Below are positions 12,888 to 33,064 of a stretch of 37,515 nt of DNA, one piece after another (positions within the stretch are counted from its first letter, which is position 1; each line of letters opens with the position of its first letter). The notes beneath the pieces were generated by a model. That model had not been told where the DNA came from. It worked only from the letters and a program-made list of their open reading frames with translations, and did not search any database. Origin of the DNA: a bacterium (GTDB taxonomy: Bacteria > Arandabacterota > Arandabacteria > Arandabacterales > Arandabacteraceae); contig JALGZP010000028.1 of NCBI GenBank assembly GCA_025774845.1, positions 1 to 37,515 on the forward strand, written 5' to 3'. Both the position numbers and the translations under genes were made by a program.

Positions 12888-12910
12888 CTGTGCTCTCTCA
12901 CCTGATTTGC

Positions 12911-14406: not shown

Positions 14407-15588
14407 ATGCCCAAGCGTACGGTGGTTACGATGCCCGGCGATGGCATCGGCAAGAATGTTCTCCAGGAAGATTTGAAGTTGCTGGATGCGGTCGGTTTCG
14501 AGGCCGAGTATGTGTTCGCCGATGTCGGCTGGGAGTTCTGGGTAACCGAGGGGAATCCTCTACCCAAGCGGACGATTGATCTTCTGGAGAAGCACCGGCT
14601 GGGTCTCTTCGGAGCTATTACGTCCAAGCCCAAGGACCAGGCGGCGAATGAACTCGCGCCCGAACTGCAGGGAAAGGGCCATGTCTACTATAGCCCCATC
14701 GTCGGTATGAGACAGTACTTCAATCTCGATCTCTGCATAAGGCCATGCAGAACCTTCAAGGGTAATCCTCTCAACTTCGCAAGAAAGACCCGGGACGGAT
14801 ACGAAGAACCCGCAGTCGACGTTGTGGTGTTCAGGCAGAACACCCAGGGACTTTATGCGGGCGTGGAATGGACAAACCCTCCGCCAGAGGTCAGGCAGGC
14901 ACTTGAGACTCACCCAAAGATGGCCGCTTTCAAGGACGTTCCCGGTGAGGATCTTGCCGTATCGACCAGGATCTATACCCGTGAGGCATGTCACAGGATT
15001 ATCGAAGAGGGCTTTAAGTACGCCAAGAAGTTCGGCTACAAGTCCGTGACCATATGCGAGAAGCCAAACGTGATCCGTGAGACCTCGGGCATGATGCGTG
15101 AGGAAGCGCGGAAGATACAGAAGGACTATCCCGGCATAGCGCTCTGGGAGACCAACATCGATGCCCAGATGATGTGGCTTAACAAGAACCCGGAGGATTA
15201 CGGTGTGATCGTAAGCGGCAACATGTTCGGGGATATCGTATCCGACGCGTTTGCCGGTCTCGTGGGTGGTCTGGGATTCGCATGCAGCGCCAACGTGGGC
15301 AAGGACTGCGCGGTGTTTGAGCCGACACACGGTTCTGCGCCCAAGTACGCGGATCTCGATCCCTCTATCGTAAATCCCATGGCGATGTTCTTAAGCAGCG
15401 CAATGATGCTCGACTACGTCGGTGAAGAGGATAAGGCCAGGCGTATCCGGGACGCTATCGCCGGGGTCGTTGAAGAGGGTAAGGTCCGGGCGTATGACAT
15501 GATGAAGCTTAAAGGCGCACCGGAGGTCTTGGACCAGGGAGCCGCAAGCACAAGTCAGATCACCGATGCTGTGATTGCAAAACTATAA
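14407..15588 (+). CDS. icd: Isocitrate dehydrogenase-family enzyme, NADP-type residues
   Basis: A 393-residue isocitrate/isopropylmalate dehydrogenase-family protein, predicted to interconvert isocitrate and 2-oxoglutarate + CO2. Visible motifs: N-terminal MPGDGIG; substrate segment SPIVGMRQ with Ser96 and Arg102, comparable to SLNVALRQ of E. coli Icd but with Ile in place of Asn; IRP with Arg112; FRQNTQGLYAGVEW (142-155); NIDAQMMW with Asp252; GNMFGDIVSD with Asp276 and Asp280; and EPTHGSAPKYA. Lys313-Tyr314, Tyr363 and Lys367 line up with Lys344, Tyr345, Tyr391 and Arg395 of the NADP-specific E. coli enzyme, whereas NAD enzymes usually have Asp-Ile at the first pair. GGAGGT six bases upstream fixes the start. 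Homoisocitrate or another beta-decarboxylating substrate is the main alternative. Confidence 0.9.
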   Translation: MPKRTVVTMPGDGIGKNVLQEDLKLLDAVGFEAEYVFADVGWEFWVTEGNPLPKRTIDLLEKHRLGLFGAITSKPKDQAANELAPELQGKGHVYYSPIVGMRQYFNLDLCIRPCRTFKGNPLNFARKTRDGYEEPAVDVVVFRQNTQGLYAGVEWTNPPPEVRQALETHPKMAAFKDVPGEDLAVSTRIYTREACHRIIEEGFKYAKKFGYKSVTICEKPNVIRETSGMMREEARKIQKDYPGIALWETNIDAQMMWLNKNPEDYGVIVSGNMFGDIVSDAFAGLVGGLGFACSANVGKDCAVFEPTHGSAPKYADLDPSIVNPMAMFLSSAMMLDYVGEEDKARRIRDAIAGVVEEGKVRAYDMMKLKGAPEVLDQGAASTSQITDAVIAKL

Positions 15589-15608
15589 AGATCTCTTGAG
15601 GAGGAATC

Positions 15609-17414
15609 ATGGGATCAACTCTTATCGAGAAGATAATCTCGAAACACGCCGGTAAACCCGCTAAGGCCGGGGATGTGGTGGACATGGGGATCGATGTCAG
15701 AGTCGCCAGGGACTTCGGCGGAGCGAACGTGGTCAAGAACATCGAGGACCATGGACTCGCCATCGATAGCCCCGAGGACACCTTCTTCACGTTCGATTGT
15801 AATCCCACGGGATCCGACCAGCGTTACGCGGCCAACCAGCAGCGGATCCGACTGTTTGCGGCTAAACATGATATCAAGGTCTATGATATCCCGGAAGGGA
15901 TCGGAACCCACATCGCGGTGGACGAAGGACTGGTGGGTCCGGGCTCGACCGTGGTTTCAACCGACTCCCACGCCAACATCGTGGGTGCCGTCGGGGCCTT
16001 CGGGCAGGGGATGGGTGACCAGGACATAGCCTATGCGTTCGCGAAGGGGCGTGTCTGGTTCAAGGTACCGCCCACCGTAAGAGTAACGATTGAAGGGCGG
16101 AGACCCGAGGGAACGACGGCCAAGGACATCACGCTGGCACTCGTTCAAAAGATCGGGGCGGGTGGACTTCTGGGTTTTGCGGCCGAAGTTTATGGCGAGG
16201 CAGCCGACGCGATGGGTCTTTCTGAAAGAATCACCCTGGCCTCTATGGCTACTGAAATGGCCGGTATCATCATCCTCTTCCCGCCGAACGAAGCGGTGCT
16301 TTCGGAGCTCAAGGCTCTGACGGGAAAGACATACACCGCACAGAGCGCTGACGCCGATGCAACCTACGAGCGCGAGATCAAACTCGATGTGAGCGATCTC
16401 AAGCCCCTGGTATCGCTTCCCGGTAATCCCGAGAACGTCGTTGCTCTGAGTGAGGTCATGGGGACAGGGATCCATTCGGGGTTTATCGGCTCGTGCACCA
16501 ACGGCCGCTACGAGGACATGCTGGAGGCGGCACGGGTGCTCGAAGGACGAAAGGTCGCGCCGGGGGTTGTTCTAAAGATAGTCCCCGCGACCAACCGGAT
16601 CTGGCGCAGGTGCCTTGAAGAGGGGATCATAAAAACGTTTAAGGACGCGGGTGCGCTGGTCGGCAACGCGGGCTGTGCAGGTTGTGCCGCGGGCCAGGTC
16701 GGCCAGAACGGCCCGGGCGAAATTACGGTGAGCACCGGTAACCGGAACTTCCCCGGTAAGCAGGGTCAGGGTAAGGTCTACCTGGCATCACCAGGGGTCG
16801 TTGCGGCATCGGCCGTACGCGGCATGATAGCAACACCCATGACTGTCGATACCGACATAGCCGCGCGTGCCGCCGAGAAGGAGGCCGCTCCCCCACCGAA
16901 GCCTCAGCCAGTTGACAGGCCCGCCGCACCTTTGAAGGTCAAGGGAAGAGTGTGGGTGATCGCCGAGGACAACATAGACACAGACATGATCTACCATAAC
17001 AGGCACCTGGCCGTTACCGAGATCGGTGAGATGGGCAACTACTGCTTCGGTAACCTCGAAGGCTGGAAGGACTTTCCCGCGAAGGTCGAGCCGGGTGATC
17101 TCGTCATAGTCGGCAGCAATTTCGGCTGTGGATCATCCCGGCAGCATGCCGTGGACTGCTTCAAGAGTCTGGGTGTCCAGGCCGTCATCGCCAGATCGTT
17201 CGGCGCCATCTACGAGCGAAATGCAATAAACGCGGGGCTTCCGATTGTGCAGGGAGATCTTGCGGGTCTTAAACTCAAGAACGGTGATGTCATAAGCCTG
17301 GACTTTACGAGTGGCGAAGTAACAAGTGAAGCTACGGGCAAGAAGGCGGATGTGAAGCCTTTCTCGGATGTTCAGCTTGAAATCTACAAGCGCGGTGGCC
17401 TGCTTTCCGGATAG
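15609..17414 (+). CDS. Aconitase-family hydro-lyase, large and swivel domains in one chain
   Basis: A 601-residue [4Fe-4S] dehydratase. Residues 1-415 are a LeuC-type large unit, with STDSHANIVGAVGAFGQG at 117-134 and probable cluster ligands Cys296 (GSCTNGR), Cys356 and Cys359 (GCAGC). An Ala/Pro/Glu-rich linker of about 25 residues (416-441) leads to a LeuD-type swivel domain (about 443-601) with DNIDTDMIY and GSNFGCGSSRQH (502-513). The length is well below the 750-900 residues of AcnA/AcnB and fits the fused LeuC-LeuD-like aconitases of some bacteria. Placed directly after the IDH gene with a GAGGAGG site and a 20-base gap, it is most simply the aconitase converting citrate and isocitrate. 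Substrate is inferred from context only. Confidence 0.9.
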   Translation: MGSTLIEKIISKHAGKPAKAGDVVDMGIDVRVARDFGGANVVKNIEDHGLAIDSPEDTFFTFDCNPTGSDQRYAANQQRIRLFAAKHDIKVYDIPEGIGTHIAVDEGLVGPGSTVVSTDSHANIVGAVGAFGQGMGDQDIAYAFAKGRVWFKVPPTVRVTIEGRRPEGTTAKDITLALVQKIGAGGLLGFAAEVYGEAADAMGLSERITLASMATEMAGIIILFPPNEAVLSELKALTGKTYTAQSADADATYEREIKLDVSDLKPLVSLPGNPENVVALSEVMGTGIHSGFIGSCTNGRYEDMLEAARVLEGRKVAPGVVLKIVPATNRIWRRCLEEGIIKTFKDAGALVGNAGCAGCAAGQVGQNGPGEITVSTGNRNFPGKQGQGKVYLASPGVVAASAVRGMIATPMTVDTDIAARAAEKEAAPPPKPQPVDRPAAPLKVKGRVWVIAEDNIDTDMIYHNRHLAVTEIGEMGNYCFGNLEGWKDFPAKVEPGDLVIVGSNFGCGSSRQHAVDCFKSLGVQAVIARSFGAIYERNAINAGLPIVQGDLAGLKLKNGDVISLDFTSGEVTSEATGKKADVKPFSDVQLEIYKRGGLLSG

Positions 17415-17422
17415 GAGGAAAC

Positions 17423-18688
17423 ATGGGCGAGACATTTGCTCAGAAACTGCTTGCCCTTAAGAGCGGCAAGAAGAGTGTCGATGTGAGTGAGATCGTGACC
17501 GTAAGGCCCGATCATCTCTTAACCCACGACAACACGGCTGCGATAATCTCAAAGATAGGCGATGAGCTCGGCACCTACGGTGTCGCAGACACCGACATCC
17601 CGGTTATCGTTATCGATCACGTCGTACCGGCAAGCAATGAAAAGACGGCCACCAATCATAAGAAGATAAGGGAATTCGTGTCGAAGTTCGGCGTGAAGCA
17701 TTTCTATGACGCGGGCGAGGGCATCTGTCACCAGGTTCTGATCGCGGAAGGCCACGCGCTCCCGGGCTCCCTTATCGTGGGAAGCGATTCACACACGTGT
17801 ACCTACGGGGCTGTCGGGGCATTTGCCACCGGGATAGACAGGACTGAGGCGGCTTCCATCCTCTTAACGGGGCAGACGTGGCTTAAAGTCCCGCAGTCGA
17901 TGAAGATTGAACTCACGGGTAGACTTGCAGGTGCTGCATCCGCCAAGGATCTGATCCTAACGATAATCGGTGACATCAGCGCAAGCGGAGCCAACTACCT
18001 TTCGGTTGAGTTTCACGGTGATACCGCGTCACTCTCGATGGAGGACCGGATGACCATAGCCAACATGGGTGTCGAGATGGGTGCCAAGAACGCCGTCTTC
18101 CCTGTCGACGACGTCACCGAGGAGTTTTTTGAGCAGGCGGGTGTCGGCAAGACCTGGAAATCCGTCTGGGCGGATGAGGATGCGTCATACATAAGAACTT
18201 TATCGTACGACCTCGACAAAATCGTGCCTACGATCGCCAAGCCGCACAGCGTCGATAATTGTGTACCAGTCACCGAATTAGTGGGGCTTAAGGTCGACCA
18301 GTGTTTCATCGGCACATGCACAAACGGCCGGCTTGGTGACCTCCGGACAGCTGCAGCAATTCTTAAAGGGAGAAAAGTCCACAAGGACACCAGGCTTCTT
18401 ATCCTTCCGGCGAGCCGGGAAATCATGCTTGAGGCACTCAAGGAGGGCATACTCCAGACCCTGATCGAATCCGGCGGCATCGTTCTCCCGCCCGGATGCG
18501 GGCCATGCCTGGGAGCACACCAGGGTGCGCTGGCTCCCGGGGAGAAGTGTCTGAGTACGGCAAATCGTAACTTCAAGGGCAGGATGGGTTGTGTGGATGC
18601 TGAGATATACCTGGCAAGTCCCGCAACCGTAGCGGCGAGTGCGATCGAGGGAAGTGTAGTCGATCCCGGGAAGGTGGTAGACCGATGA
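17423..18688 (+). CDS. 3-isopropylmalate dehydratase/homoaconitase-family large subunit (LeuC-like)
   Basis: A 421-residue large subunit of a second aconitase-superfamily hydro-lyase. Typical features are HDNTAAII (35-42), IVIDHVVPASN (62-72), GSDSHTCTYGAVGAFATGID (120-139), and [4Fe-4S] ligands Cys299 in GTCTNGR and Cys359/Cys362 in PPGCGPCLG. The length matches the homoaconitase/IPM isomerase subgroup. The gene starts eight bases after the previous stop with an overlapping AGGAGG site and ends in an ATGA overlap with the small-subunit gene, so the two should form one enzyme. The substrate cannot be read from the sequence: citrate, isopropylmalate, homocitrate or citramalate/mesaconate are all possible. 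Its presence beside a separate one-chain aconitase suggests a distinct substrate. Confidence 0.92.
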   Translation: MGETFAQKLLALKSGKKSVDVSEIVTVRPDHLLTHDNTAAIISKIGDELGTYGVADTDIPVIVIDHVVPASNEKTATNHKKIREFVSKFGVKHFYDAGEGICHQVLIAEGHALPGSLIVGSDSHTCTYGAVGAFATGIDRTEAASILLTGQTWLKVPQSMKIELTGRLAGAASAKDLILTIIGDISASGANYLSVEFHGDTASLSMEDRMTIANMGVEMGAKNAVFPVDDVTEEFFEQAGVGKTWKSVWADEDASYIRTLSYDLDKIVPTIAKPHSVDNCVPVTELVGLKVDQCFIGTCTNGRLGDLRTAAAILKGRKVHKDTRLLILPASREIMLEALKEGILQTLIESGGIVLPPGCGPCLGAHQGALAPGEKCLSTANRNFKGRMGCVDAEIYLASPATVAASAIEGSVVDPGKVVDR

Positions 18689-19176
18689 AGGTATGGAAGT
18701 ATGACGACAACATAAATACCGATATGTTGTTTCCGGGTAAATACACTTATACATGCAGCACCGCCGAGGAGATAAGACCGCACCTGCTTGAGGATCTTGA
18801 TCCGGACTTTGCAAAGCAGGCCCAGGCCGGGGATATCGTGATGGCGGGTGACAACTTCGGCTGTGGGAGCTCGCGTGAACAACCGACGGTGGGGCTCAAG
18901 GCGGTCGGAATCAAGGCAGTCGTGGCCCGGAGCTTTGCAAGGATCTTCTACAGGTCGGCGATAAACCAGGGCCTGATTCTCGTTGAGTGCCCCGAAGCCG
19001 TGGATGCATACAGCGACGGCGATGCGGTTGATGTCGATCCTGAGGGTGGAGTGATAACGGTGGCCGGCAAGGAGTTCAGGTTCCCGAAGCTGCCGCCCCA
19101 GATCATTGCAATCAGAGACGCAGGCGGTCTGCTGGCTTATGTAAGAAAAGAACTCGCGAGGAAAGGGGCGCGGTAA
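18685..19176 (+). CDS. 3-isopropylmalate dehydratase/homoaconitase-family small subunit (LeuD-like)
   Basis: A 163-residue swivel subunit that completes the active site of the preceding LeuC-like protein. It has DDNINTDMLFPGKY at the N-terminus and the signature GDNFGCGSSREQ (55-66), followed by KAVVARSFARIFYRSAINQGL (77-97). The loop after the first motif, K-Y-T-Y-T (residues 19-23), is the region known to select substrate in this family. It is not a pattern I can assign to isopropylmalate or homoaconitate. Translation is coupled on both sides: ATGA overlap with the large subunit and TAATG overlap with the next gene. Confidence 0.92.
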   Translation: MKVWKYDDNINTDMLFPGKYTYTCSTAEEIRPHLLEDLDPDFAKQAQAGDIVMAGDNFGCGSSREQPTVGLKAVGIKAVVARSFARIFYRSAINQGLILVECPEAVDAYSDGDAVDVDPEGGVITVAGKEFRFPKLPPQIIAIRDAGGLLAYVRKELARKGAR

Positions 19177-20387
19177 TGGCAAAAGGCGAAGCCGGGAAGC
19201 GTGGAAAGGGTGTCAGGTCGGATTGCTGGATTTCGATCGAGAAGAAGAAGTCCGGCGGCATCGCGCTCAAGGTGACATCGAAAGTCGAGAGCATGTATGG
19301 TGATTCGATCAGGACAACCATCCAAGAGGGGCTTAAGTTCTTCGGGATTACGGATGCTGCGGTGGAGCTGGAGGACCGGGGGGCTCTGCCTTTCGGGCTG
19401 ATAGCGAGGCTGGAGGCCGCCGTGAGACGGCTCAACCCCGCCGAAGAGAAACAGCTGCTCCCTGAAATGTTCTCGGAATGTACTTATGCTACAACCCGGG
19501 AAAGGATGCGGCGCTCAAGACTCTATCTACCCGGTAACGAACCCAAGTTCGCCGTCAATGCCGGTATACACCACCCGGATGGTATCATTCTAGATCTCGA
19601 AGATAGCGTCCACCCAAGTGAAAAGGATGCGGCGCGTGTGATGGTACGAAATGCGCTCCGGCAGGTCGATTTCATGGGTTCGGAGCGCATGGTGCGAATA
19701 AACCAGGGCGAGATGGGTCTCCTGGATCTCGAGTTCGTGGTACCGCACAACGTCCATATCATTCTGATCCCCAAGTGCGAAAGCGTTGAGGATGTAAAAA
19801 CGGTCGACGCGAAGGTCCAGGAGATAAGAAAACGCGATAGGATCGATTCCGATGTGTTCCTTATGCCGATCGTTGAATCGGCCCTCGGAGCTCTGAGGGC
19901 ATACGACATCGCCGCCGCGTCACCCAATACTGTAGCTCTTACCATAGGCCTTGAAGATTATACCGCCGATATCGGCACACGGCGCACTACCGAGGGACGG
20001 GAAAGTTTCTGGGCCAGGTCGCAGGTCGTAAACGCCGCGCGGGCCGCAAAGGTCCAGCCGATCGATACCGTGTTCTCCGATGTCCAGGACATGGATGGTC
20101 TTCGCGAGAGTGTGATCGAAGCCAAGTCACTCGGTTTCGACGGCAAGGGCTGTATTCACCCGCGACAGATCGGTGTCATCCATGAAGCCTTTGCACCGGC
20201 GGATGCCGAGATCGAACGCGCGAAGCGGATCGTGCTTGCTTTCCAGGATGCGGAATCCAGGGGGCTGGGGGTTGTCTCACTGGGGAGTAAGATGATCGAT
20301 CCTCCGGTCGTAAAGCGAGCCCTGCACACCGTCGACCAAGCGATCGCTACAGGAAAACTCGATGAGGATTGGAGGGACCAGAAATGA
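19176..20387 (+). CDS. citE: Citrate lyase acyl-carrier (CitD) - beta subunit (CitE) fusion protein
   Basis: A 403-residue fusion. Residues 1 to about 90 match CitD, the acyl carrier (gamma) subunit: SKVESMYGDSIRTTI (35-49) and VELEDRGALPFGLIARLEA (63-81) correspond to the conserved SSVEKQFGDAIR and VDDKGALDCVLRARLEA segments. Residues about 108-403 are a full CitE, with RSRLYLPGN (113-121), ILDLEDSVHPSEKDAAR (138-154), VRIN with Arg174, Glu234 in IVESALG, GLEDYTADIG (258-267) and GFDGKGCIHPRQI (320-332). CitE cleaves the citryl thioester to oxaloacetate and acetyl-carrier. The carrier serine in CitD normally sits at about position 14 in an E-S-x-D context; here the text is V-R-S-D with Ser15. 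Separate genes are the rule in classical citrate lyase operons. Confidence 0.92.
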   Translation: MAKGEAGKRGKGVRSDCWISIEKKKSGGIALKVTSKVESMYGDSIRTTIQEGLKFFGITDAAVELEDRGALPFGLIARLEAAVRRLNPAEEKQLLPEMFSECTYATTRERMRRSRLYLPGNEPKFAVNAGIHHPDGIILDLEDSVHPSEKDAARVMVRNALRQVDFMGSERMVRINQGEMGLLDLEFVVPHNVHIILIPKCESVEDVKTVDAKVQEIRKRDRIDSDVFLMPIVESALGALRAYDIAAASPNTVALTIGLEDYTADIGTRRTTEGRESFWARSQVVNAARAAKVQPIDTVFSDVQDMDGLRESVIEAKSLGFDGKGCIHPRQIGVIHEAFAPADAEIERAKRIVLAFQDAESRGLGVVSLGSKMIDPPVVKRALHTVDQAIATGKLDEDWRDQK

Positions 20388-21943
20388 AAACCGATTCCGG
20401 ACTTGTTCGAAATGCAGCCGGAAGGCTGGTCCCGACCGTTTCCAACGGAAAGGAACAGGTCCCTTACAAGGGTGTAGCCAAGTACAAGCCCGAAGGCACG
20501 AAAGTAGCTCCCCCCATCGCATCCTGTAAGGACTACCCGGCCGACGGCAACAAGGTGGTAAAGGATCTAAAAACCGCGCTTAAGGCCGCAGGTCTTAAGG
20601 ACGGGATGACGATATCCACGCATCACCATCTGAGAAACGGTGACCTCGTCGCCAATATGATATTCGACATTGCAGCTGAGATGGGTGTTAAGGACCTGAT
20701 GTGGTTTCCCAGCGCCTCCTTCCCATGCCAGGCCAAGAACATCGATCACATGGATAGCGGTGTGATCCATCACATCGAAGGAAGCATGAACGGGCCGCTG
20801 GGCCGCTATTGCTCCGAAGGAAAGATGAGGGGCATGGGGATGCTCAGATCCCACGGCGGAAGGTACCAGGCCGTTCAGGACGGCGAGGTCCATATCGATA
20901 TTGCCGTGATCGCGGCACCGACGTCCGACTCCTTCGGTAACTCCAACGGTCTTACAGGGCCATCGGCCTGTGGTCTCCTGGGCTTCGCCCTGGCCGATTC
21001 ACAGTACGCGGATAAGGTCATCGTTGTAACCGATAACCTCATTCCCTTCCCATGCATCCCCTGGCAGATACAGGGTAACTATGTCGACCACGTGGTTGTT
21101 GTGGATAAGCTCGGTGATCCGGAGAAGATCATCTCGGGGACGACCCAGATCACCAAGAGCCCCGACCGGCTGCTCATCGCGGAGATGACAGCACAGTTCG
21201 TCAGGGAAGCAGGTCTCATGAAGGAAGGCTTTTCTTTTCAGGCGGGTGCGGGCGGCACATCGCTTGCCTTCGCCATATTCCTCAAGGAAATGATGAAGGA
21301 TGAGGGAATCAAGGCGAGATTCATACGCGCGGGCAGCACCAAGTATCAGGTTGAGATGCTCGAAGAGGGCCTGACCGACTACATTCTCGATGGCCAGACG
21401 TTCGACCTCGAAGGCATTCGGTCGATGCGCGAGAACCCCGGTCATGTGTGGACGAGCCCGTTTACCAGCTACAACTATCACGGTAAGGGTAACTTCGCTT
21501 CGCTCCTGGATATCGTGATCCTCGGCGCCACCGAGGTCGATGTCAATTTCAATGCCAATGTGGTGACACACTCCGACGGGTTGTTACTTCACGGTATCGG
21601 CGGGTGGCAGAACTGCCTGTTCGGTAACTGCGTGATTCTTCCCATCCCATCCTTCAGAGACCGGATACCGGTCCTGGTGGATGAGGTTACGACACTTTGC
21701 GGCCCGGGTGAATTGATCGATGTCATCATAACCGAGCGTGGCATAGCGATAAATCCGCTGCGGAAGGACCTCCTCGATGCCGTCAAGGGCTCGAGCCTTC
21801 CGATAAAGACGATCGAGGAACTCAAGACCGGCGTCGAGAAGCTCTGTGGCGGCGCGCCGCAGAAGCCGAAGTTCAAGGACAAGGTTGTGGCGGGAATCAA
21901 GTGGGTCGACGGAACCCTGATCGACTCCGTACGCCAGGTCTGA
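20384..21943 (+). CDS. citF: Citrate lyase alpha subunit (citrate:acetyl-ACP transferase)
   Basis: A 519-residue CitF. This subunit exchanges citrate for acetate on the carrier thioester, after which CitE cleaves it. Signature segments include STHHHLRNGDLV near residue 77, the SFGNSNG and ACGLLGFA region near 180-200, ADKVIVVTDNLIPFP near 205, and LGDPEKIISGTTQIT near 245. The ATG at 20384 is chosen over an in-frame TTG at 20369: GGAGGG lies seven bases before it and it overlaps the upstream stop as ATGA. It is the last gene of the operon. No citC ligase, citX or citG prosthetic-group gene is present in the window, so maturation enzymes must be elsewhere or absent. Citramalate lyase, which has the same subunit families, is the alternative. 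Confidence 0.93.
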   Translation: MKTDSGLVRNAAGRLVPTVSNGKEQVPYKGVAKYKPEGTKVAPPIASCKDYPADGNKVVKDLKTALKAAGLKDGMTISTHHHLRNGDLVANMIFDIAAEMGVKDLMWFPSASFPCQAKNIDHMDSGVIHHIEGSMNGPLGRYCSEGKMRGMGMLRSHGGRYQAVQDGEVHIDIAVIAAPTSDSFGNSNGLTGPSACGLLGFALADSQYADKVIVVTDNLIPFPCIPWQIQGNYVDHVVVVDKLGDPEKIISGTTQITKSPDRLLIAEMTAQFVREAGLMKEGFSFQAGAGGTSLAFAIFLKEMMKDEGIKARFIRAGSTKYQVEMLEEGLTDYILDGQTFDLEGIRSMRENPGHVWTSPFTSYNYHGKGNFASLLDIVILGATEVDVNFNANVVTHSDGLLLHGIGGWQNCLFGNCVILPIPSFRDRIPVLVDEVTTLCGPGELIDVIITERGIAINPLRKDLLDAVKGSSLPIKTIEELKTGVEKLCGGAPQKPKFKDKVVAGIKWVDGTLIDSVRQV

Positions 21944-22134: not shown

Positions 22135-24411
22135 ATGCATCAGCTATGTACAGGCATCCTTCGCAATCTTCTGTTTCTAACATGCGCTCTCTCTGTTTCT
22201 TATGTGAGTGCAAGTGCTGAAATGTACGGACTATCCATTCAAACCACCGACAACGTCACGATACGGGGGAATCTATACGATAGAGATAACGATAAGGTTA
22301 TCATTTACTGCCATCGACTCCTCGGTTCTCAAGGCGGGGACGAAATACAGCGGCTCCTGGCGGCATTCATAGATGAATATGACCTGATCACTTTCAATTT
22401 CAGAGGGCATAAATCCAGCGCCCGGATAAGTAGTTCCGGTGGAGATGAAGTTCTCGACCTCCGCGCGCTTACATCTTTTGCCACTGAAAGGGGGTACAGC
22501 AGAATCGTAGTTCTTGGAGCCGGTATGGGAGGGAGTGTGGCGCTTCGAACTGCTGGGATGTTCGGGAATATGGATGCCCTAATTGTTATCAGCCCGTCAG
22601 GGTTTTCACCTGAGCTCCAACCGTTCTTGATCAGAAAGGCATCCCATATAATGCTCGACACAGATTTCGGAAGAGTGCCGTTGAGGATTATTACAAAGAC
22701 CCGCCTTGGGGCAAGATACACTGCTGGTTACCCGATTGACATGATGGGAACTGTTTCTCATATTCCCCTTCTGGTTGTTCAATCGAGGAAAGACAGATTT
22801 GCGAAATTAGACAAGATCCGCAGCGCCTTTGGTCGCATCCTAGCGCCACAGGATTTGATCGTCTTACCCGGCAATCGGCATGCGAACAAACTGCTGGTAG
22901 AAAGCACATTAACCACAATTCGGAAATGGTTGAATGACGTATTCCTCGAAGACGGCTATGACCATACTCTCTTGTGCGGGGAGCGTTCCGTTAATGTCTA
23001 TCCGGATTCTGTCCAGATAGTTTTGACCGGCGACTTGCCAATCCCGGAAAACATGTTACGGCGTGACCTTTATAAAAGGCTGTACGGATCTGCAGGGGCT
23101 TCCTCCCCCACCAGAATAGGAATTGAAAGCGTATTCTCCAACTTAAAAGCCGTGTTGTCTTTCTACGGTTACACTGTTACTTCACTTACCGTATCTGATC
23201 CAGTCGCCCCCTTCAAGATACAGGTTTCGATACCCAGGATCAACTTCGTTTCAATTAACGGTAATCAATGCGTAACGGATGACTATATCCGCTACATACT
23301 GAAATTCGGCGGGGACTACTATAATTCGTACGGACTTGACAAAGCCATAAGACGGCTATCCTCCCAGCCAGCGATTCAAACGGTAACATCAGGTATTGGG
23401 ATGAGAGAGGACGGAAACGTCGACATTCATTTGACCGTTGTCGAGCGACGGCCATACAGGCTGCTTCTTTCCACCAAGTTCACAGACGTTGACAAGTTTG
23501 TGGGTATGGGTTTCACCTGGAATGAGTTTAACCCCTCCGGATTGCAGTTGGAGGGGAAGGCGATGCTTGGGGTGATTGAGCGTGACTTCCTATCCAGTTT
23601 CAGGATAGCCAAGAATCTCTGGCGTAACAACATTCAACTTGGTGCTGGGTATTTCGACATTATCAAAAGCCGGGACGACCTGAAATACGTTTACACACGG
23701 CAGGAGTCCCGTGAGTTGGGCGGAGAGTTCACTGCGGGCTATCGAATCACGTCTACTGTAACCGTTAACCTTGGAGTATTCGGAAAACAATATAAATCGC
23801 CTGGGGCAGAACCTGACACTCTTGTTGAGGAGGGAACCGCAATTGGAAATTCCGTGAAGTTGGATATAAGCGGCAAGTTACCCCTGCATGGCCCCCCCCG
23901 CTTTAACTGGGGACACACTTTCTACTTTCAAAGGACAGGACTTGCCAAGACGGGAGATTTCGATTTCAATACCTTCCAGCTCAATTTCACAGGCGAATTG
24001 AGACTGTGGGGACACCATAGATCTGAAACCTCATTCCACTACGGGTGGCTCTCCGGGGAAGCGCCGCCCCAGGAACACTTCTCACTCGGTGGTATGACCA
24101 CCTTGCCCGGGTACCCTGACGACTCATTCGTAGACACACGCATGATGAGAGCGAGCCAGGCCCTTTATCTGTGCGCCAGCAGCTGGTTTGCAGAAACTTC
24201 CTCGCTTGCACCTTTGCGCGCTATTTTCACTTTCAATGCAGGGACTGTCTGGGGTAGCAGAGACAAGTTCGCGTCGTCCAGTATAAGAATGGATGCGGGA
24301 TTCGAACTCGATTATATGGAGGTCCTGAGGTTGGGAATTGCTGTACCTGTAGGATCTAAACGTCTCAAATCACCTCGGTATTACCTGGGCTGGGAGATAC
24401 ATGTACTCTGA
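22135..24411 (+). CDS. Alpha/beta-hydrolase-like domain fused to POTRA domains and an Omp85-family barrel
   Basis: A 758-residue exported outer-membrane protein. A signal peptide ends A-S-A near residue 28. Residues about 30-272 follow the alpha/beta-hydrolase order: VIIYCHRLLGS (oxyanion region), FNFRGHKSS, the elbow VLGAGMGGS, Asp220 in VVQSRKDRF and His249 in LPGNRHANK. The elbow position that should hold the nucleophilic Ser is Gly130. Residues about 284-365 may be a degenerate POTRA; 370-438 is a clear POTRA (VSINGNQCVTDDYIRYIL to VDIHLTVVERR). Residues about 440-758 form an Omp85-like barrel with the loop-6-like motif LGGMTTLPGYPDDS (651-664) and a C-terminal aromatic strand. The layout recalls type Vd patatin autotransporters such as PlpD, with a different passenger. 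Base composition is lower in GC than the operon upstream. Confidence 0.85.
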   Translation: MHQLCTGILRNLLFLTCALSVSYVSASAEMYGLSIQTTDNVTIRGNLYDRDNDKVIIYCHRLLGSQGGDEIQRLLAAFIDEYDLITFNFRGHKSSARISSSGGDEVLDLRALTSFATERGYSRIVVLGAGMGGSVALRTAGMFGNMDALIVISPSGFSPELQPFLIRKASHIMLDTDFGRVPLRIITKTRLGARYTAGYPIDMMGTVSHIPLLVVQSRKDRFAKLDKIRSAFGRILAPQDLIVLPGNRHANKLLVESTLTTIRKWLNDVFLEDGYDHTLLCGERSVNVYPDSVQIVLTGDLPIPENMLRRDLYKRLYGSAGASSPTRIGIESVFSNLKAVLSFYGYTVTSLTVSDPVAPFKIQVSIPRINFVSINGNQCVTDDYIRYILKFGGDYYNSYGLDKAIRRLSSQPAIQTVTSGIGMREDGNVDIHLTVVERRPYRLLLSTKFTDVDKFVGMGFTWNEFNPSGLQLEGKAMLGVIERDFLSSFRIAKNLWRNNIQLGAGYFDIIKSRDDLKYVYTRQESRELGGEFTAGYRITSTVTVNLGVFGKQYKSPGAEPDTLVEEGTAIGNSVKLDISGKLPLHGPPRFNWGHTFYFQRTGLAKTGDFDFNTFQLNFTGELRLWGHHRSETSFHYGWLSGEAPPQEHFSLGGMTTLPGYPDDSFVDTRMMRASQALYLCASSWFAETSSLAPLRAIFTFNAGTVWGSRDKFASSSIRMDAGFELDYMEVLRLGIAVPVGSKRLKSPRYYLGWEIHVL

Positions 24412-25201
24412 TAAGCTGATCAGATACCTGCTCAACAGGAAGAGGCGGATGGCAATCTCAGCTACTCTGCTGATAGTGGCCTTGCTTCTCATCTCATGCG
24501 GGGGGAAGGGAAAGAGTATCAGCCGATCAACCATCGAATACCACCGGGACGGTGATATTGATCTTTATCGCAGCGCCCTTGCCCTCCGATTTGCCCCCCG
24601 GCTTTATATGCATGATAAGGATTCAACAGAGATCTTTGAGATAATCCCGGTGTTTCACCCGAAACAACCGGTTATTGCGTATCACATATTTCTTGGAGAT
24701 GATGCCCTTTTCGCTGGATGGGGTAAGCCAATCGACCATGAGATTCTGTGGGTTGAATACGATCCAGTCACCTTCAAAGTATCAGATGTAGCAACATACT
24801 GGCACAGGACGGTGCTGAGGACCGATGCCTGTATTGTAGATGCCAAAGCCTCACAACAGCGTCCAAAGGTCTTTGTCCAGTGGGGACAACACGGGCTTCT
24901 TCCTCTTGGGTGGGACAATCTGGCGACAGCGCGCCCAAGGGTTGAACTCCTGGCGCACTACGGCCTTATTACCACATTACCTAGAATACCGGGAGTGCAA
25001 AAGAACGTCGATGCTCCGATTACATTCGATGGCTCGTGGGAGGAATACATCCAGTTCACCAAAGAGGTCGATGTCACTCACTATCTTAAGAATGCGGAGA
25101 TTGTTGTCAGTGAATACCCCGACGACGAATTAAGGTCACTAATCGAACCTGCCTATGGGGAGTTTGGACGTAAGAAAGAATGGCCCTGGTGGTCCCCATG
25201 A
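24401..25201 (+). CDS. Small lipoprotein of unknown function
   Basis: A 266-residue lipoprotein. After a basic stretch (RKRR at 13-16) comes a hydrophobic segment and a lipobox L-I-S-C with Cys33. The body carries LALRFAPRLYMHDKDSTEIFE, HEILWVEYDP, ATYWHRTVLR and RPKVFVQWGQHGLLPLGW. The arrangement faintly recalls VPS62-like proteins (a HP-x-V-Y-V-A-x-G-S-H-A type strand), but this is too weak to name it. The first ATG overlaps the end of the barrel gene by 11 bases and has GGGAG a few bases upstream, so the pair is probably co-translated and may act together in the outer membrane or periplasm. A start at the ATG 24449 would also leave a valid signal peptide. Confidence 0.82.
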   Translation: MYSDKLIRYLLNRKRRMAISATLLIVALLLISCGGKGKSISRSTIEYHRDGDIDLYRSALALRFAPRLYMHDKDSTEIFEIIPVFHPKQPVIAYHIFLGDDALFAGWGKPIDHEILWVEYDPVTFKVSDVATYWHRTVLRTDACIVDAKASQQRPKVFVQWGQHGLLPLGWDNLATARPRVELLAHYGLITTLPRIPGVQKNVDAPITFDGSWEEYIQFTKEVDVTHYLKNAEIVVSEYPDDELRSLIEPAYGEFGRKKEWPWWSP

Positions 25202-25204
25202 GTA

Positions 25205-26092
25205 TTAGCGGATTATAGTGAATCCGACCGTCCACCGCATTCCGCGGTACTGGTTGCGGCCCGCCAGGTCCCCGGCGGTTTCAATGTCCAATCTCATATT
25301 ATGAATTGGCCTCAGAGATACGCCGTAGCCGAGTGTGGCGCGTCTGCCCTCGTGTTCGTAGAAATCCAGATCGTCCCCCTCGAATTCTCCATTCCAGAAG
25401 TTGGTCAGGTCGCCATATACGTAGAATCGCATATCAGGATGAACAAAAAGCTTATGTCCGCCCAGCAACTTGAATTTCAGCTCATCAAAGGGTTTCCAAC
25501 CCTTGTCCTTGAACCGGTACTTGTAGCCGGCGGATAGCTCCGTGTACCAGTATTCCGTTTCGAGATCCACGTAGTAAAGCGGAAAAACATCCACCTGACC
25601 ATCACCGATATGGAGACCGTCCTCCCAATCTCTCTTCTTGGACAGAGGAATTTTAACTCGAAGTGAGGAAGAGGAGAAAAATAGAAACGTCCACCATCTG
25701 TGTTGCACAGTCAGCCAGAGTTCTCTTACCGCGAACCGATGAACCGCATTTTCTCTTAGATCCGGCACCATCTCCTGATAGGTCCACCCCACGGGCACTA
25801 TGATGCCGACGTTCAGCGAATTCGTCAGCCCATATTGCACCTGAAGCGGGACTTCTAAATAGAGGAGACCGGTGACCGTTTCCAGATTCAGGGCTTTTCC
25901 CCGGTCAGAGAAGTAGGCGTTTGTGAAGAATACCTTCGGATAGCACTTGAACAAGAACACCCCTTTTGGCGCCGTCGATGCGCCGAATTCCTGGGCATTG
26001 GTGCCTGCAGGTATGAGGATGAGCAGAAGCACGACGCATACCCTGAACCAAAACACTATCGGCGCTGAAGTACCGTTCCTACGCAAATACAT
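25205..26092 (-). CDS. Outer-membrane beta-barrel protein
   Basis: A 295-residue protein with a signal peptide (hydrophobic residues about 12-30, cleavage near T-N-A) and a mature part made of alternating amphipathic strands with many Tyr, Trp and Phe girdle residues. Examples are GLLYLEVPLQVQYGL, ELWLTVQHRWW and TEYWYTELSAGYKYRF. It ends in a typical last strand, MRWTVGFTIIR. It resembles MetA/phenol-pathway type outer-membrane channels, though this was not verified. Its ATG overlaps the stop region of the upstream phosphodiesterase gene by 14 bases, so the two are translated as a unit. The stop lies three bases from the stop of the convergent lipoprotein gene. Transport or anchoring role unknown. 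Confidence 0.82.
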   Translation of the reverse strand: MYLRRNGTSAPIVFWFRVCVVLLLILIPAGTNAQEFGASTAPKGVFLFKCYPKVFFTNAYFSDRGKALNLETVTGLLYLEVPLQVQYGLTNSLNVGIIVPVGWTYQEMVPDLRENAVHRFAVRELWLTVQHRWWTFLFFSSSSLRVKIPLSKKRDWEDGLHIGDGQVDVFPLYYVDLETEYWYTELSAGYKYRFKDKGWKPFDELKFKLLGGHKLFVHPDMRFYVYGDLTNFWNGEFEGDDLDFYEHEGRRATLGYGVSLRPIHNMRLDIETAGDLAGRNQYRGMRWTVGFTIIR

Positions 26093-27728
26093 TTAGCAAC
26101 ACCCCTTCATAGGTTTTAGTCAGACCGAAATACTCCAGGTAAACAGGAAAAAGATCTACCGTTCTTGCTCGCTCTATAACATGATTCTGTTTAATCGTCG
26201 GGCCGGCGATCACACAAGGCACCATCATTTCAGGCTTCTCCAGACCGCCGTGTCCCGCGTTGCGGATCTCTCCTATTGTCATTATGTCGGAACCACGGCC
26301 CCCGTTCCTGTTTGGTTCCGAGGAGATCACTATATCACCGCATCTGTCGGAATCGAAAAGCTGCGAAATCTGGAAGGGAGCATCCGGATAATCGGTGCCT
26401 GTCGTCGCGGCAAACCACTCGTCCTTATCGTGATGAGTTCCGTCGATGAGCTGATCGCTCTCGGGATTGCCGGCATACCCAAGTGGGTCGTTCCCGTTAA
26501 CCACCGTATATCTGAGATCGCACAGCTCCCGCTCTATTTTGCTTTCACCCTCTTTCGAGAATACCCGGCAAACGTCTCTCGTTTCCTTTGCCATAACCAG
26601 CTTTATGGCAGGCTCGTTCTTGAGAAGTTTGATAAGGTCGATTCTCTCCTTGTCCTCAACCGGGAAATCACGCAGCTCGTCATATTCTACCGGATTCGCC
26701 CAGTCGAAGTACTTGAGGAGTCTATATCTTTTCTTCTTCGCGAAGTAAAGAAGAGCGAAATTGTCTCCGCTTACGGCGCGTGCAGCGTTGTATCTCAGGA
26801 GCGAGTTGTAGCCGTCATTACCCGTGAGGTCTTTCAGGACGTTGAAGCCGTATCCGGTGAGGATATCCCGGATTCTCGTGCTCTTGTCAGGATCGTTATC
26901 GCGGAGGCCATGATCGGCAACCAGTGAGACGATCGTCTTGTCGTAGATCCCCCTTTCTTGCAGTGTCTCCATGATTTGTCCGATCTGCGTGTCGATACCG
27001 TGTGCTCTCTCGCACACCTCGTCGCTTGTCGATCCGCATACATGCGCGAGATGGTCCACCGCAGGCAACCAGACAAGTGTGTACTTCGGAGGAGTCTCTT
27101 CTTTACCGAAAACTCGTTTGAACGTATCAACTGCGTCCTGGTCTATAGCGTCTTTCCAGGCCTTCATATTCTCCGGCGTTGATAATGACAAAAGGACAGC
27201 AGTTTTGATTGGTGGAGCATGATACTCCTTCGCGCCACGGTTGCAGAAGTCGAAAATACATGCCGTTCTCTCATTGCCGAGTATTTCGTAAAGGGTAAGA
27301 TTCGATCTGGGAAAGTCACTATTCAAGAAGAGGCCTTCAGCGGAGGTGTAATCCCTCAACACATTCTGTCTGCGATCGATCCAACGAAGGCCCGGGCAGT
27401 TATTGCTCCCGGGCATACAGCCGTTTATATAGGGCAGGTGCGCCGGCCCGGTGGTGGAAGGAAAAGTCGTGATGCAGTTTTCAACCAATGTCCCTCTATC
27501 GACCAGGTGCTCTTTTATATTCGGCAACTCTCCGGCGTCGAGCATCTCTTTGAACAGATCCGCGCGCCATCCATCAGTCAAAATTGTCAAGCCGTACCTG
27601 TTGGGAAACTTCGAAGGTGGTCGAACCTTGCGGTAGGCGCACCCGCTGAAGAATGAAGCCATGGCCCCTAGATTCGTAAGATTCACTCCCGTGAATGCCA
27701 GCAAACGCAGAGCTTCTCTTCGGTTCAT
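26079..27728 (-). CDS. Tat-type lipoprotein, alkaline phosphatase/nucleotide pyrophosphatase-phosphodiesterase family
   Basis: A 549-residue exported metal-dependent hydrolase of the type I phosphodiesterase (ENPP-like) branch of the alkaline phosphatase superfamily. The N-terminus has an Arg-Arg motif (N-R-R-E-A-L-R-L-L) and a lipobox-like F-S-G-C, so a Tat-exported lipoprotein with Cys30 is predicted. Metal and catalytic residues can be placed: Asp52 (TDGWR), probable nucleophile Thr93 in FPSTTGPAH, Asp224 and His228 (VDHLAHVCG), Asp272-His273 (ADHGL) and His493 (AGHGG). A phosphodiester or pyrophosphate substrate is expected, possibly a lipid head group, but this cannot be read from sequence. 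GGAGGT six bases before the ATG is a strong ribosome site. Sampled lines of this gene are lower in GC (about 42-48%) than the citrate operon (about 57-63%). Confidence 0.9.
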   Translation of the reverse strand: MNRREALRLLAFTGVNLTNLGAMASFFSGCAYRKVRPPSKFPNRYGLTILTDGWRADLFKEMLDAGELPNIKEHLVDRGTLVENCITTFPSTTGPAHLPYINGCMPGSNNCPGLRWIDRRQNVLRDYTSAEGLFLNSDFPRSNLTLYEILGNERTACIFDFCNRGAKEYHAPPIKTAVLLSLSTPENMKAWKDAIDQDAVDTFKRVFGKEETPPKYTLVWLPAVDHLAHVCGSTSDEVCERAHGIDTQIGQIMETLQERGIYDKTIVSLVADHGLRDNDPDKSTRIRDILTGYGFNVLKDLTGNDGYNSLLRYNAARAVSGDNFALLYFAKKKRYRLLKYFDWANPVEYDELRDFPVEDKERIDLIKLLKNEPAIKLVMAKETRDVCRVFSKEGESKIERELCDLRYTVVNGNDPLGYAGNPESDQLIDGTHHDKDEWFAATTGTDYPDAPFQISQLFDSDRCGDIVISSEPNRNGGRGSDIMTIGEIRNAGHGGLEKPEMMVPCVIAGPTIKQNHVIERARTVDLFPVYLEYFGLTKTYEGVLLNVFA

Positions 27729-30801: not shown

Positions 30802-33006
30802 CTATCGCGGTGCACCGACAAGTTCCCGTATGCTGTCTTCAATTCCTCTCGCGGTCCGGTGAAGTTCCCGCTTCTTCTCAAGCAGGTTGTCCTCCGAAAC
30901 CGGGGAATGAAGCTGCGTATGAAAACGCAGCGAGTTGGTCGTACCCGACGGTCTGATCGTCAGGTGATTCAGACGGTCCTCATCGAAATAGAATCGCACA
31001 CCCTCGTCCGGGAACTCAAAGTCCCCGCTCGGTGGATAGATCGCATCATACTTGCCCGTACGGTAGATACAGGTCGACTTGACGGCAAGACCACCAATCT
31101 CCAGCCCCCCCTCCTTCGCGCGCCGGTGAAGGTCGAGCGTCGTCTCGAGAATCGTCTTCTTGATTCTGTCGCCTTTGATCCCGGGATACTCACCATCCAG
31201 GGGGTCGGGCTCGTAGTGGTTCACAAAGAGACCGATATCGGGATCGAGATAAACGTGCTTGTCTATCAGCTCAAACACCGTTGTCCCCTGCTGCCTGGCC
31301 CATTCCGCGACTTCCGCGATCAGCATTGCGGCGAAAGTGCCGTCCTTGTCACGAACATGACCGCCGGTCCCGAGGGAGAACTGATCGGGAGGGGGAGATC
31401 CCAGAATCGAGAAACCGTTGCTCTGTTCCATCGCAGCGGCATTGTGTACGCGCTTGGCGTCCATCCCGACCGTCTCCTGAATGAACGGGTGACACAGGGG
31501 ATCCGAAGGGCTTTTCCTGCCTTCACTAAGCCCCGTGGCGAGTTTACCGTCCCAGGTGTCCCTTACTCCGGCCGATAAGGCGGCAAAGCCCACCCATGTT
31601 TTGACAACACCCAGCCCGTTTTTGAGCGAAAGTCTAACGATGCTGTCACTCGTAGTATGCGACAGCACGACAAAGGCCTTCTCGCGGTCGGCCGCCTTGT
31701 CCTGGTTGAGCCTGAACCAGAGCACAAGTGCCCAGAGGTCATCGGCAGTAAGCAGTGTGTAATCTTTCCCGCCATAGAGAGGCCGTTGCGCTTCGGGTAC
31801 CTTGACGACAACGGCGCATCGATCGGCATCGGGGTCGGTCCCGATCAGGATATCGGTCTCTTCCCACTCACCCGGGTACTCTTCCTTGAAAGCGCTTACG
31901 GCGCGTTCGGCGGCCCTCGGGTCACCCGGGTCGGGTTGCTGTTCTTTACCGGCGTCACTGCAAAAGGACGGAAAGAGCCCGTTGAGCTCGTTGAGTTCGT
32001 TCCGGGTAATGCTGGTCACATGTTTAAACCCGGTCTCCTCCAGCAACCTGGGAACGGCTTTTCTACCCGCGCCATGGAAGGCACAATAGGCAACTCTGAG
32101 TGAGGCCTCCATCCCAGGCTTACCCGCATAGAGCAGGAACGATTTCACATGCTCGCGGTGCGCCTTGTGGACATCAATCAGATCACACCCATGATAGTCG
32201 AAGCCGCCGACCTTATTCCCCCCACCCAGAAAGTAAACCTTGCCCTTGGGCGCATCCGAAATCGGACAGAGTTTGATATCGTCGGTCGTTGCCTTGACTA
32301 TGTATTCCCTGTACATCTCTTCCCGCTCTTCCGGGTCGAACTGCGATCCATTGCCGCATGACAACTTGTAACCGTTGTAGCGGTAGTCGTTGTGACTCGC
32401 GGAAATCAGGATCCCCATGTCGGTCCTAAGATGCGGTATCGCGAATGTCACCTCAGGATAGGGACAGGGCTCGTCAAAAAGGTAGACGGTGTAGCCGAAG
32501 GCAATGAAGAGCTCGGCGATCGTCTCGGCAAAGTCGTGACCCCGGACCCTGCTGTCATATCCGATGACAATCTTGCTGAAACCCTTGCCCACTCCGAACT
32601 TCGCAACCCCCACTGAGGTCTTGAGGAGCACCACGTTATTGAGCGTGTTAGGACCTTTGAGTATGCGTGCGTCAAGGCCGTCTCGAGCAAGCGTCTCAAT
32701 TGACGCCTTATCACACGCCATCAACCCTCTGATACCGCCTGTCCCGAAGCTCATGTGTTTCCGGAAAGCGTTTACGATGTCCTCCCACCTGCCCTTTTCG
32801 ACAGCATCTACTATTCCCGCCTTGAGATTCGGTGATATCCTGTCGATGTTCCCATCCTCCAGCCACTCCCTGAGGTTACAGAGCGTATTCCCGCTGGCGT
32901 CATCGTATAACTGCTGGTCGATGTGCCCTTTCTCCATCTCTGAATCGAGATAGCGGCCGATGCCCTGTTCCGCATCCGAGATCACCTTGTTGATGTCAAA
33001 TGCCAT
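30802..33006 (-). CDS. Alpha-D-phosphohexomutase (phosphoglucomutase/phosphomannomutase family)
   Basis: A 734-residue sugar phosphomutase interconverting 1- and 6-phosphates of a hexose. Motifs in order: FGTGGIRG (87-94), the phosphoserine loop ISASHNDYRYNGYK with catalytic Ser204 (201-214), the metal loop GTDPDADRC (389-397), the sugar-binding part near EGRKSP (495-500) and the phosphate-binding RPSGTTNS (685-692). At over 730 residues it is longer than the usual 450-600; the additions are an N-terminal helical part and insertions around 400-450 and 590-650. Two in-frame starts exist: ATG at 33024 and ATG at 33006. The latter is preferred because GGAGG lies between them, though the spacing is long. 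The partner phosphatase gene follows in the same operon. Confidence 0.92.
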   Translation of the reverse strand: MAFDINKVISDAEQGIGRYLDSEMEKGHIDQQLYDDASGNTLCNLREWLEDGNIDRISPNLKAGIVDAVEKGRWEDIVNAFRKHMSFGTGGIRGLMACDKASIETLARDGLDARILKGPNTLNNVVLLKTSVGVAKFGVGKGFSKIVIGYDSRVRGHDFAETIAELFIAFGYTVYLFDEPCPYPEVTFAIPHLRTDMGILISASHNDYRYNGYKLSCGNGSQFDPEEREEMYREYIVKATTDDIKLCPISDAPKGKVYFLGGGNKVGGFDYHGCDLIDVHKAHREHVKSFLLYAGKPGMEASLRVAYCAFHGAGRKAVPRLLEETGFKHVTSITRNELNELNGLFPSFCSDAGKEQQPDPGDPRAAERAVSAFKEEYPGEWEETDILIGTDPDADRCAVVVKVPEAQRPLYGGKDYTLLTADDLWALVLWFRLNQDKAADREKAFVVLSHTTSDSIVRLSLKNGLGVVKTWVGFAALSAGVRDTWDGKLATGLSEGRKSPSDPLCHPFIQETVGMDAKRVHNAAAMEQSNGFSILGSPPPDQFSLGTGGHVRDKDGTFAAMLIAEVAEWARQQGTTVFELIDKHVYLDPDIGLFVNHYEPDPLDGEYPGIKGDRIKKTILETTLDLHRRAKEGGLEIGGLAVKSTCIYRTGKYDAIYPPSGDFEFPDEGVRFYFDEDRLNHLTIRPSGTTNSLRFHTQLHSPVSEDNLLEKKRELHRTARGIEDSIRELVGAPR

Positions 33007-33064
33007 GTCTCTCAGTTCCTCCATGCTCGTGGTTCATAGCGATCACAATTGTATGCTGCCGGAT

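What the first reader, a model, noticed from the sequence alone, without database searches (positions are those of the whole stretch)
22135..24411. Alpha/beta-hydrolase-like passenger fused to POTRA and an Omp85-type barrel: a possible new type V-like architecture
The protein reads signal peptide, alpha/beta-hydrolase-like domain (about 30-272), one weak and one clear POTRA (about 284-438), then a roughly 320-residue Omp85-like barrel with an LPGY loop-6-like motif. Patatin-POTRA-barrel fusions (PlpD, type Vd) are established; an alpha/beta-hydrolase-fold passenger in the same layout is not one I know. It could display or release a lipid-acting or binding module at the cell surface, or act in the periplasm.
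Basis: partly seen in the sequence, partly recalled or inferred. Interest (0 to 1): 0.85.

Follow-up and report, generated by a model that had tools for sequence, protein, structure and literature searches.

The report
Dead-hydrolase Omp85 outer-membrane protein
A rare outer-membrane barrel protein from uncultured bacteria carries a conserved but almost certainly inactive enzyme domain at its inner end; it travels between phyla with three neighbouring cell-envelope genes, which suggests the domain serves for binding rather than for attacking lipids.

Summary
ORF 22135-24411 (758 aa) encodes a signal peptide, an alpha/beta-hydrolase-fold domain (about 30-272), two POTRA-like domains (about 293-366, 367-438) and an Omp85-type barrel (440-758). 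Full-length homologues with the same layout occur in two Neomarinimicrobiota genomes (63% and 47% identity) and in none of the other genomes sampled.

The interpretation changes. The hydrolase is a pseudoenzyme: the nucleophile serine is glycine (Gly130) in all three proteins, the oxyanion HG motif is lost, and one also lost the histidine. All 22 standalone relatives examined keep the serine. The domain is still under purifying selection (dN/dS about 0.16 for one pair). The barrel lacks the Omp85 loop-6 lid-lock (Arg to Pro, strand-13 Asp to Asn701).

The gene overlaps a lipoprotein gene by 11 bp in a four-gene envelope island shared by all three genomes, probably transferred laterally: the window copy is closer to one in another phylum than two copies within that phylum are to each other.

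Type Vd surface display is not supported; PlpD's own N-terminal domain is periplasmic. The most likely role is a periplasmic, non-catalytic docking domain on a specialised Omp85 protein. Function is inferred; no experiment exists.

The parts
22135..24411 (+). Gene for the 758-aa pseudohydrolase-POTRA-POTRA-Omp85 protein (stop codon included)
   Evidence: full-length homologues L002:5275-7563 and L010:1072-3375
22135..22218 (+). Sec-type signal peptide, about residues 1-28 (MHQLCTGILRNLLFLTCALSVSYVSASA)
   Evidence: Read directly from the sequence; single helix 2-28 in the model. No signal-peptide program was available
22222..22950 (+). Alpha/beta-hydrolase-fold domain, residues about 30-272
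   Evidence: Pfam; 5g59 esterase 4e-12; pLDDT mostly 80-96
22522..22524 (+). Gly130 codon at the nucleophile-elbow position (G128-A-G-M-G132), serine in all 22 standalone relatives
22792..22794 (+). Asp220 codon, position of the catalytic acid, kept in all three homologues
22879..22881 (+). His249 codon, position of the catalytic histidine, kept in window and L002, lost in L010
23011..23232 (+). POTRA-like domain 1, residues about 293-366 (weak)
   Evidence: beta-alpha-alpha-beta-beta order in the model, pLDDT about 53-75; no Pfam hit of its own
23233..23448 (+). POTRA domain 2, residues 367-438
   Evidence: PF07244; aligned with the last POTRA of BamA proteins; model
23452..24408 (+). Omp85-type barrel, residues 440-758; 13 strands assigned, 16 inferred
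   Evidence: TIGR03303, PF01103, colinear BamA alignment, model and Foldseek
24103..24114 (+). Loop-6 motif L657-P-G-Y660, in place of (V/I)RG(F/Y); LPAH in L010
24235..24237 (+). Asn701 codon in FxNxG, in place of the strand-13 Asp of the Omp85 lid-lock
   Evidence: motif definition PMC7644211
24401..25201 (+). Partner gene: 266-aa predicted lipoprotein (lipobox LLISC), ATG overlaps the preceding stop by 11 bp in all three genomes
   Evidence: no Pfam or PDB match
25205..26092 (-). Partner gene: 295-aa exported protein, outer-membrane-barrel-like by sequence character; conserved in all three genomes
   Evidence: no Pfam match
26079..27728 (-). Partner gene: 549-aa phosphodiesterase (PF01663) with a twin-arginine-like start and lipobox-like FFSGC
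   Evidence: Pfam 3e-26; 55-56% identical in both other genomes

Best explanation
The protein is an outer-membrane member of the Omp85 superfamily. Its N-terminal alpha/beta-hydrolase domain has lost catalysis and serves as a binding or docking domain in the periplasm, next to the POTRA domains and under the barrel. It probably recruits or holds a client of its own gene island (the overlapping lipoprotein, or the 295-aa barrel-like protein, or a lipid or glycan that they handle) for assembly at, or transfer across, the outer membrane. Shown here: the layout, loss of the nucleophile, purifying selection on the domain, loss of the lid-lock residues, and the conserved four-gene island. Inferred from PlpD: the periplasmic place. 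Inferred only from gene order: the client.
For: All three homologues have Gly at the nucleophile while 22 of 22 standalone relatives have Ser; the oxyanion HG is CHR or CHP in the fusions and HG in most relatives; His is lost in L010. The hydrolase is as conserved as the barrel (66% against 69% identity, window to L002), and dN/dS is about 0.16 (0.22/1.36) for that pair, so it is maintained. Omp85 layout. Four-gene island with the same 11-bp overlap in three genomes whose flanks are unrelated. In PlpD the domain in the same place is periplasmic and packs on the POTRA (PMC11116518). Alpha/beta-hydrolase folds without the active serine serve as binding domains in neuroligins (PMC8526735).
Against: No experiment. 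Placement of the hydrolase against the POTRAs could not be read from the model (pTM 0.47). The lid-lock arginine and aspartate are essential or universal in characterised Omp85 proteins (PMC7644211), so their absence argues that this barrel does not do ordinary BamA-type work. The client is a guess from gene order. Only three sequences are known.
Confidence: 0.5

Rival explanations
1. A type Vd-like autotransporter: the barrel carries the hydrolase-like domain to the cell surface, where it binds an outside ligand.
For: Same order of parts as PlpD and FplA (N-terminal domain, POTRA, Omp85 barrel); the review literature still classes these as secreted (PMC6555100).
Against: PlpD's patatin domain was shown to be periplasmic (PMC11116518). 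A folded hydrolase ahead of two POTRAs would have to cross a narrow 16-strand pore without ATP, as that paper argues. Here there are two POTRA-like domains, not one.
Confidence: 0.12
2. A PlpD-like lipid-homeostasis factor that no longer cuts: the pseudohydrolase binds phospholipid of the inner leaflet and the barrel senses or moves lipid, with the phosphodiesterase and lipoprotein as the enzymes of the pathway.
For: Deleting plpD changes phospholipid levels (PMC11116518). The L002 locus has a diacylglycerol-kinase-like gene and a START-like gene just upstream. The island holds a phosphodiesterase. Relatives of the lipoprotein sit beside inositol-catabolism-like genes in other genomes. The G241 island lies beside a patatin-POTRA protein.
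Against: The upstream lipid genes are not shared by the window or by G241. There is no lipid-binding evidence. Most single features here are common in envelope gene clusters.
Confidence: 0.22
3. An active enzyme with a displaced nucleophile: another residue near the pocket (for example Ser134 or Cys59) takes over, with Asp220 and His249.
For: Asp220 is kept in all three and His249 in two; pocket-lining motifs are strongly conserved.
Against: Cys59 and Ser134 also occur in standalone enzymes that have the normal serine, so they are not replacements. L010 has no histidine at the catalytic position. The oxyanion motif is changed.
Confidence: 0.1
4. A decaying or misassembled gene, or a contig of another organism put into the wrong bin.
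For: All three genomes are metagenome-assembled; the island has lower G+C (0.503) than the rest (0.55-0.57).
Against: Open frame and synteny kept in three independent assemblies; dN/dS about 0.16. Tetranucleotide profiles of the three window thirds correlate 0.59-0.76 with other contigs of the genome against 0.37-0.49 with the two donor-like contigs.
Confidence: 0.03

Closest known systems
PL-Omp85 proteins (type Vd: PlpD of Pseudomonas aeruginosa, FplA of Fusobacterium nucleatum)
   Same: Signal peptide, N-terminal alpha/beta domain of hydrolase type, POTRA, Omp85 barrel in one chain
   Different: Domain is of Abhydrolase/S33 type, not patatin; the catalytic serine is gone where PlpD has an active Ser-Asp dyad; two POTRA-like domains instead of one; no lid-lock arginine
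BamA / TamA and the 'BamA-like' subfamily of Heinz and Lithgow 2014 (PMC4104836)
   Same: POTRA next to a 16-strand-type barrel, colinear alignment with BamA
   Different: Extra folded N-terminal domain; loop-6 Arg and strand-13 Asp replaced; not the housekeeping copy (the genome has a separate BamA, L003)
Omp85 'Metallo' subfamily and other fusions (PMC4104836)
   Same: Omp85 barrel with an unrelated enzyme-type domain at the N-terminus
   Different: Different domain; the 2014 survey of ten subfamilies does not mention a hydrolase
Alpha/beta-hydrolase esterase 5g59 and related S33/Abhydrolase_6 enzymes
   Same: Fold and sequence family of the N-terminal domain
   Different: Active serine and HG oxyanion motif absent here; fused to an outer-membrane barrel
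Neuroligins (cholinesterase-like adhesion proteins)
   Same: Alpha/beta-hydrolase fold without the active serine, used for binding; an analogy of working principle only
   Different: Eukaryotic, single transmembrane helix, no relation to Omp85

Membership tests
Omp85 superfamily | 16-strand barrel of Omp85 type | tested here: inconclusive
   TIGR03303 9e-7 over 369-743, colinear BamA alignment, 50 best PDB matches all Omp85; but first third of the barrel has pLDDT under 50 and only 13 strands were assigned
Omp85 superfamily | At least one POTRA domain before the barrel | tested here: met
   PF07244 at 367-438, 1e-5 in the best orthologue; beta-alpha-alpha-beta-beta in the model
Omp85 superfamily | Loop-6 (V/I)RG(F/Y) with salt bridge to Asp of strand 13 (F/G)xDxG | tested here: not met
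   LPGY or LPAH and FxNxG in all three; 31 of 33 comparison rows have R in loop 6. Other Omp85-like proteins also lack the Arg, e.g. L088 (P) and L095, L115, L116, L118, L121 (N), so this lowers the claim of canonical working, not of descent
Type Vd (PL-Omp85) | Patatin-family N-terminal domain | tested here: not met
   No Patatin hit; Abhydrolase_6, Hydrolase_4 and Abhydrolase_1 instead. A true patatin-POTRA protein in G241 is recognised at 3e-30
Type Vd (PL-Omp85) | Active serine (Ser-Asp dyad) | tested here: not met
   Gly130 in place of Ser in all three homologues
Type Vd (PL-Omp85) | Single POTRA domain | tested here: not met
   Two POTRA-like units, 293-366 (weak) and 367-438
Type Vd (PL-Omp85) | Secretion or surface display of the N-terminal domain | not testable with these tools
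   Disputed even for PlpD (PMC11116518)
Active alpha/beta-hydrolase enzyme | GxSxG nucleophile elbow | tested here: not met
   GAGMGG / GVGMGG / GAGMGG
Active alpha/beta-hydrolase enzyme | Catalytic acid and histidine | tested here: inconclusive
   Asp220 kept in three; His249 kept in two of three
Alpha/beta-hydrolase superfamily (fold) | Sequence and fold match | tested here: met

The most novel reading that the evidence does not exclude
A new, laterally moving kind of Omp85 machine in which both halves have given up their usual chemistry: a pseudohydrolase receptor domain selects a client in the periplasm, and a barrel without the lid-lock passes it across or into the outer membrane, the client being the island's own lipoprotein or barrel protein.
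Probability: 0.2. Interest if true: 0.75.

Novelty: new variant of a known kind. Interest (0 to 1): 0.5.

Why it matters
The Omp85 superfamily is thought of as assembly and secretion machines with POTRAs and, in one class, an active lipase domain. Here a relative kept the hydrolase fold but dropped the chemistry, and also dropped the loop-6 salt bridge described as present in all Omp85 structures. If real in function, it shows the N-terminal domain of such fusions can be a receptor rather than an enzyme, which bears on the open dispute about what PlpD-type proteins do, and it gives a natural test of whether the lid-lock is needed. The small, mobile, four-gene setting makes the client question testable.

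Tried and rejected
First AlphaFold2 run with three sequences failed (mean pLDDT 30.2) and was not used. PDB search with the C-terminal profile alone gave no BamA. Pfam and PDB searches of the lipoprotein and Pfam of the 295-aa protein gave nothing. Scans of viral contigs and of plasmids by protein (only a hydrolase-domain match in Nonomuraea) gave no fusion. Searches for the same layout: 2 of 245 genomes of the Neomarinimicrobiota set, both with the fusion; 1 of 8 in the window's own phylum, itself; none among the other genomes of a 386-genome wide sample, nor in three further phyla of 85, 9 and 7 genomes. Promoter and terminator scan was at chance level. Wrong binning considered and judged unlikely. 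An alternative nucleophile was considered and judged unlikely.

Full report
What is there. The ORF at 22135-24411 on the + strand codes for 758 aa without an internal stop. From the N-terminus it reads: a Sec-type signal peptide (sequence inspection), an alpha/beta-hydrolase-fold domain at about 30-272, two POTRA-like units at about 293-366 and 367-438, and an Omp85-type barrel at 440-758. The hydrolase assignment rests on Pfam, on a three-sequence profile that matches esterase 5g59 at 4e-12 and on a confident model. The second POTRA is weak in the window protein but clear in an orthologue (1e-5). The barrel is below the Pfam cut-off (0.0023), but the BamA model TIGR03303 matches 369-743 colinearly at 9e-7. 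The C-terminal half aligns with a BamA from POTRA to near the C-terminus in one piece.

Structure. A first prediction with three sequences was useless. A second, with 57 rows (three full-length proteins, 21 standalone hydrolases, 33 Omp85 proteins), gave mean pLDDT 69.2 and pTM 0.47. In that alignment the relatives' serine column falls on Gly130 and the loop-6 motif column on LPGY, as a parallel alignment in Python had shown beforehand for 21 of 21 hydrolases and 32 of 33 Omp85 rows. Both POTRA regions have the order beta-alpha-alpha-beta-beta. Thirteen barrel strands were assigned; the stretches 442-449, 485-491 and 749-757 are likely further strands, which would make 16 with loop 6 between strands 11 and 12. 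That count is my inference, because 439-537 and the last 16 residues have pLDDT under 50. The 50 best PDB matches are all Omp85 proteins (BamA, TamA, TOC75), with low TM-scores because domain placement in the model is poor. The input rows included BamA, so this is support, not proof.

Relatives. A full-length homologue at 63% identity lies in a Neomarinimicrobiota genome (L002/G008), and one at 46-47% in a second genome of that phylum (L010/G241). No other fusion was found among the genomes searched. The survey is broad but thin: about one genome per family outside these phyla, and a peptide-pattern scan of 84,980 species that would miss distant members (it missed G241). The statement that it is rare is therefore about what was searched.

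The hydrolase is dead. The nucleophile elbow G-x-S-x-G reads GAGMG, GVGMG and GAGMG. In all 22 standalone relatives aligned with them the residue is serine. The oxyanion motif HG is HR or HP in the fusions. The acid (Asp220) is kept; the histidine (His249) is kept in two and lost in the third. Cys59 and Ser134, the obvious candidates for a replacement, occur also in relatives with a normal serine. Yet the domain is maintained: 66% identity between window and L002 against 69% for the barrel, and Nei-Gojobori dN 0.22 against dS 1.36 for that pair (the other pairs are saturated). A pseudoenzyme kept for its fold is the simplest reading. Neuroligins are a known case of this principle, not relatives (PMC8526735).

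The barrel is odd as well. In Omp85 structures the loop-6 arginine of (V/I)RG(F/Y) makes a salt bridge with the strand-13 aspartate of (F/G)xDxG, an interaction described as seen in all of them (PMC7644211). Here the motif is LPGY (LPAH in L010) and FxNxG, and no glutamate stands at the strand-12 position. The arginine is missing in a few other Omp85-like proteins too: Pro in a PDZ-Omp85 fusion (L088) and Asn in several proteins of another phylum. Loss of the arginine is thus not unique, but loss of both partners was seen only in this family.

The island. Next to the gene, overlapping by 11 bp in all three genomes, is a predicted lipoprotein (24401-25201). Convergent to it lie a 295-aa exported, barrel-like protein (25205-26092) and a phosphodiesterase with a twin-arginine-like, lipobox-like start (26079-27728). 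These four are 46-63% identical between window, L002 and L029, and no other gene of the compared stretches is shared apart from T9SS sorting tails and overlapping antisense frames. BamA of this genome is at most 31% identical to those of the other phylum. The window protein is 65% identical to L002 across phyla while L002 and L010, in one phylum, are 52% identical. The island's G+C is 0.503 against 0.55-0.57 elsewhere in the genome. Together these point to lateral transfer of the four genes as a unit; a tree of more members would be needed to prove it. The lipoprotein has diverged relatives in five further Neomarinimicrobiota genomes; in the two examined they lie beside what look like inositol-catabolism genes, so that partner is not tied to the fusion alone.

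How it probably works. PlpD, with the same order of parts, keeps its N-terminal domain in the periplasm against the POTRA (PMC11116518). By that precedent I place the pseudohydrolase in the periplasm. Without chemistry it most likely binds: a client protein of its island, or a lipid. The first is my best explanation (0.5), the lipid version a close rival (0.22), surface display less likely (0.12), hidden catalysis less likely still (0.1). Which client it is, and whether the barrel inserts, translocates or merely anchors, is not shown by anything here.

Comparison with the known. It belongs to the Omp85 superfamily by descent, with one defining motif tested and not met. It is not a type Vd protein: wrong domain family, no active serine, two POTRAs. 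The 2014 survey of ten Omp85 subfamilies does not mention a hydrolase (PMC4104836), and full-text searches for this architecture found none, though the library is open-access only. Other Omp85 fusions turned up in passing (PDZ, CBM9), so such fusions are a broader theme. Verdict: a real, rare, new variant of a known kind, of moderate interest.

Noticed in passing
L029:7063-9498 (G241): A patatin-POTRA protein of PlpD type (Patatin 3e-30) lies directly beside the four-gene island in one of the three genomes.
   Followed up: partly
L110:6743-7792, L112:7108-8160: Longer relatives of the island's lipoprotein (about 350 aa) sit at the end of what look like inositol-catabolism gene clusters in other Neomarinimicrobiota genomes; the conserved His/Asp pattern suggests a metal site.
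   Followed up: partly
L088:129-2474: A protein with two or more PDZ domains fused to an Omp85/ShlB-type barrel, also with LPGY in loop 6.
   Followed up: partly
L092:1-2820: A CBM9-like carbohydrate-binding domain fused to POTRA and an Omp85 barrel.
   Followed up: partly
L115, L116, L118, L121 and L095 (phylum of G291): Omp85-like proteins with LNGY in loop 6, that is, without the lid-lock arginine, behind an unidentified N-terminal region.
   Followed up: no
window 14407-21943: A run of IDH-like, aconitase-like (one with large and small subunit in one chain, plus a second large subunit) and CitF citrate lyase alpha-subunit genes, perhaps a citrate-cleavage or reductive TCA module.
   Followed up: no
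window 2231-4528, 7039-9678, 33313-35157, 35182-37494: Four proteins with T9SS type A sorting tails (TIGR04183), so the host has a type IX secretion system.
   Followed up: no
window 11151-13007: 618-aa protein with a threonyl-tRNA-synthetase-like part (143-265) ahead of a uridine-kinase-like domain.
   Followed up: no
window 30802-33024: 740-aa protein in which only residues about 115-241 match phosphoglucosamine mutase models strongly; the rest is unassigned.
   Followed up: no
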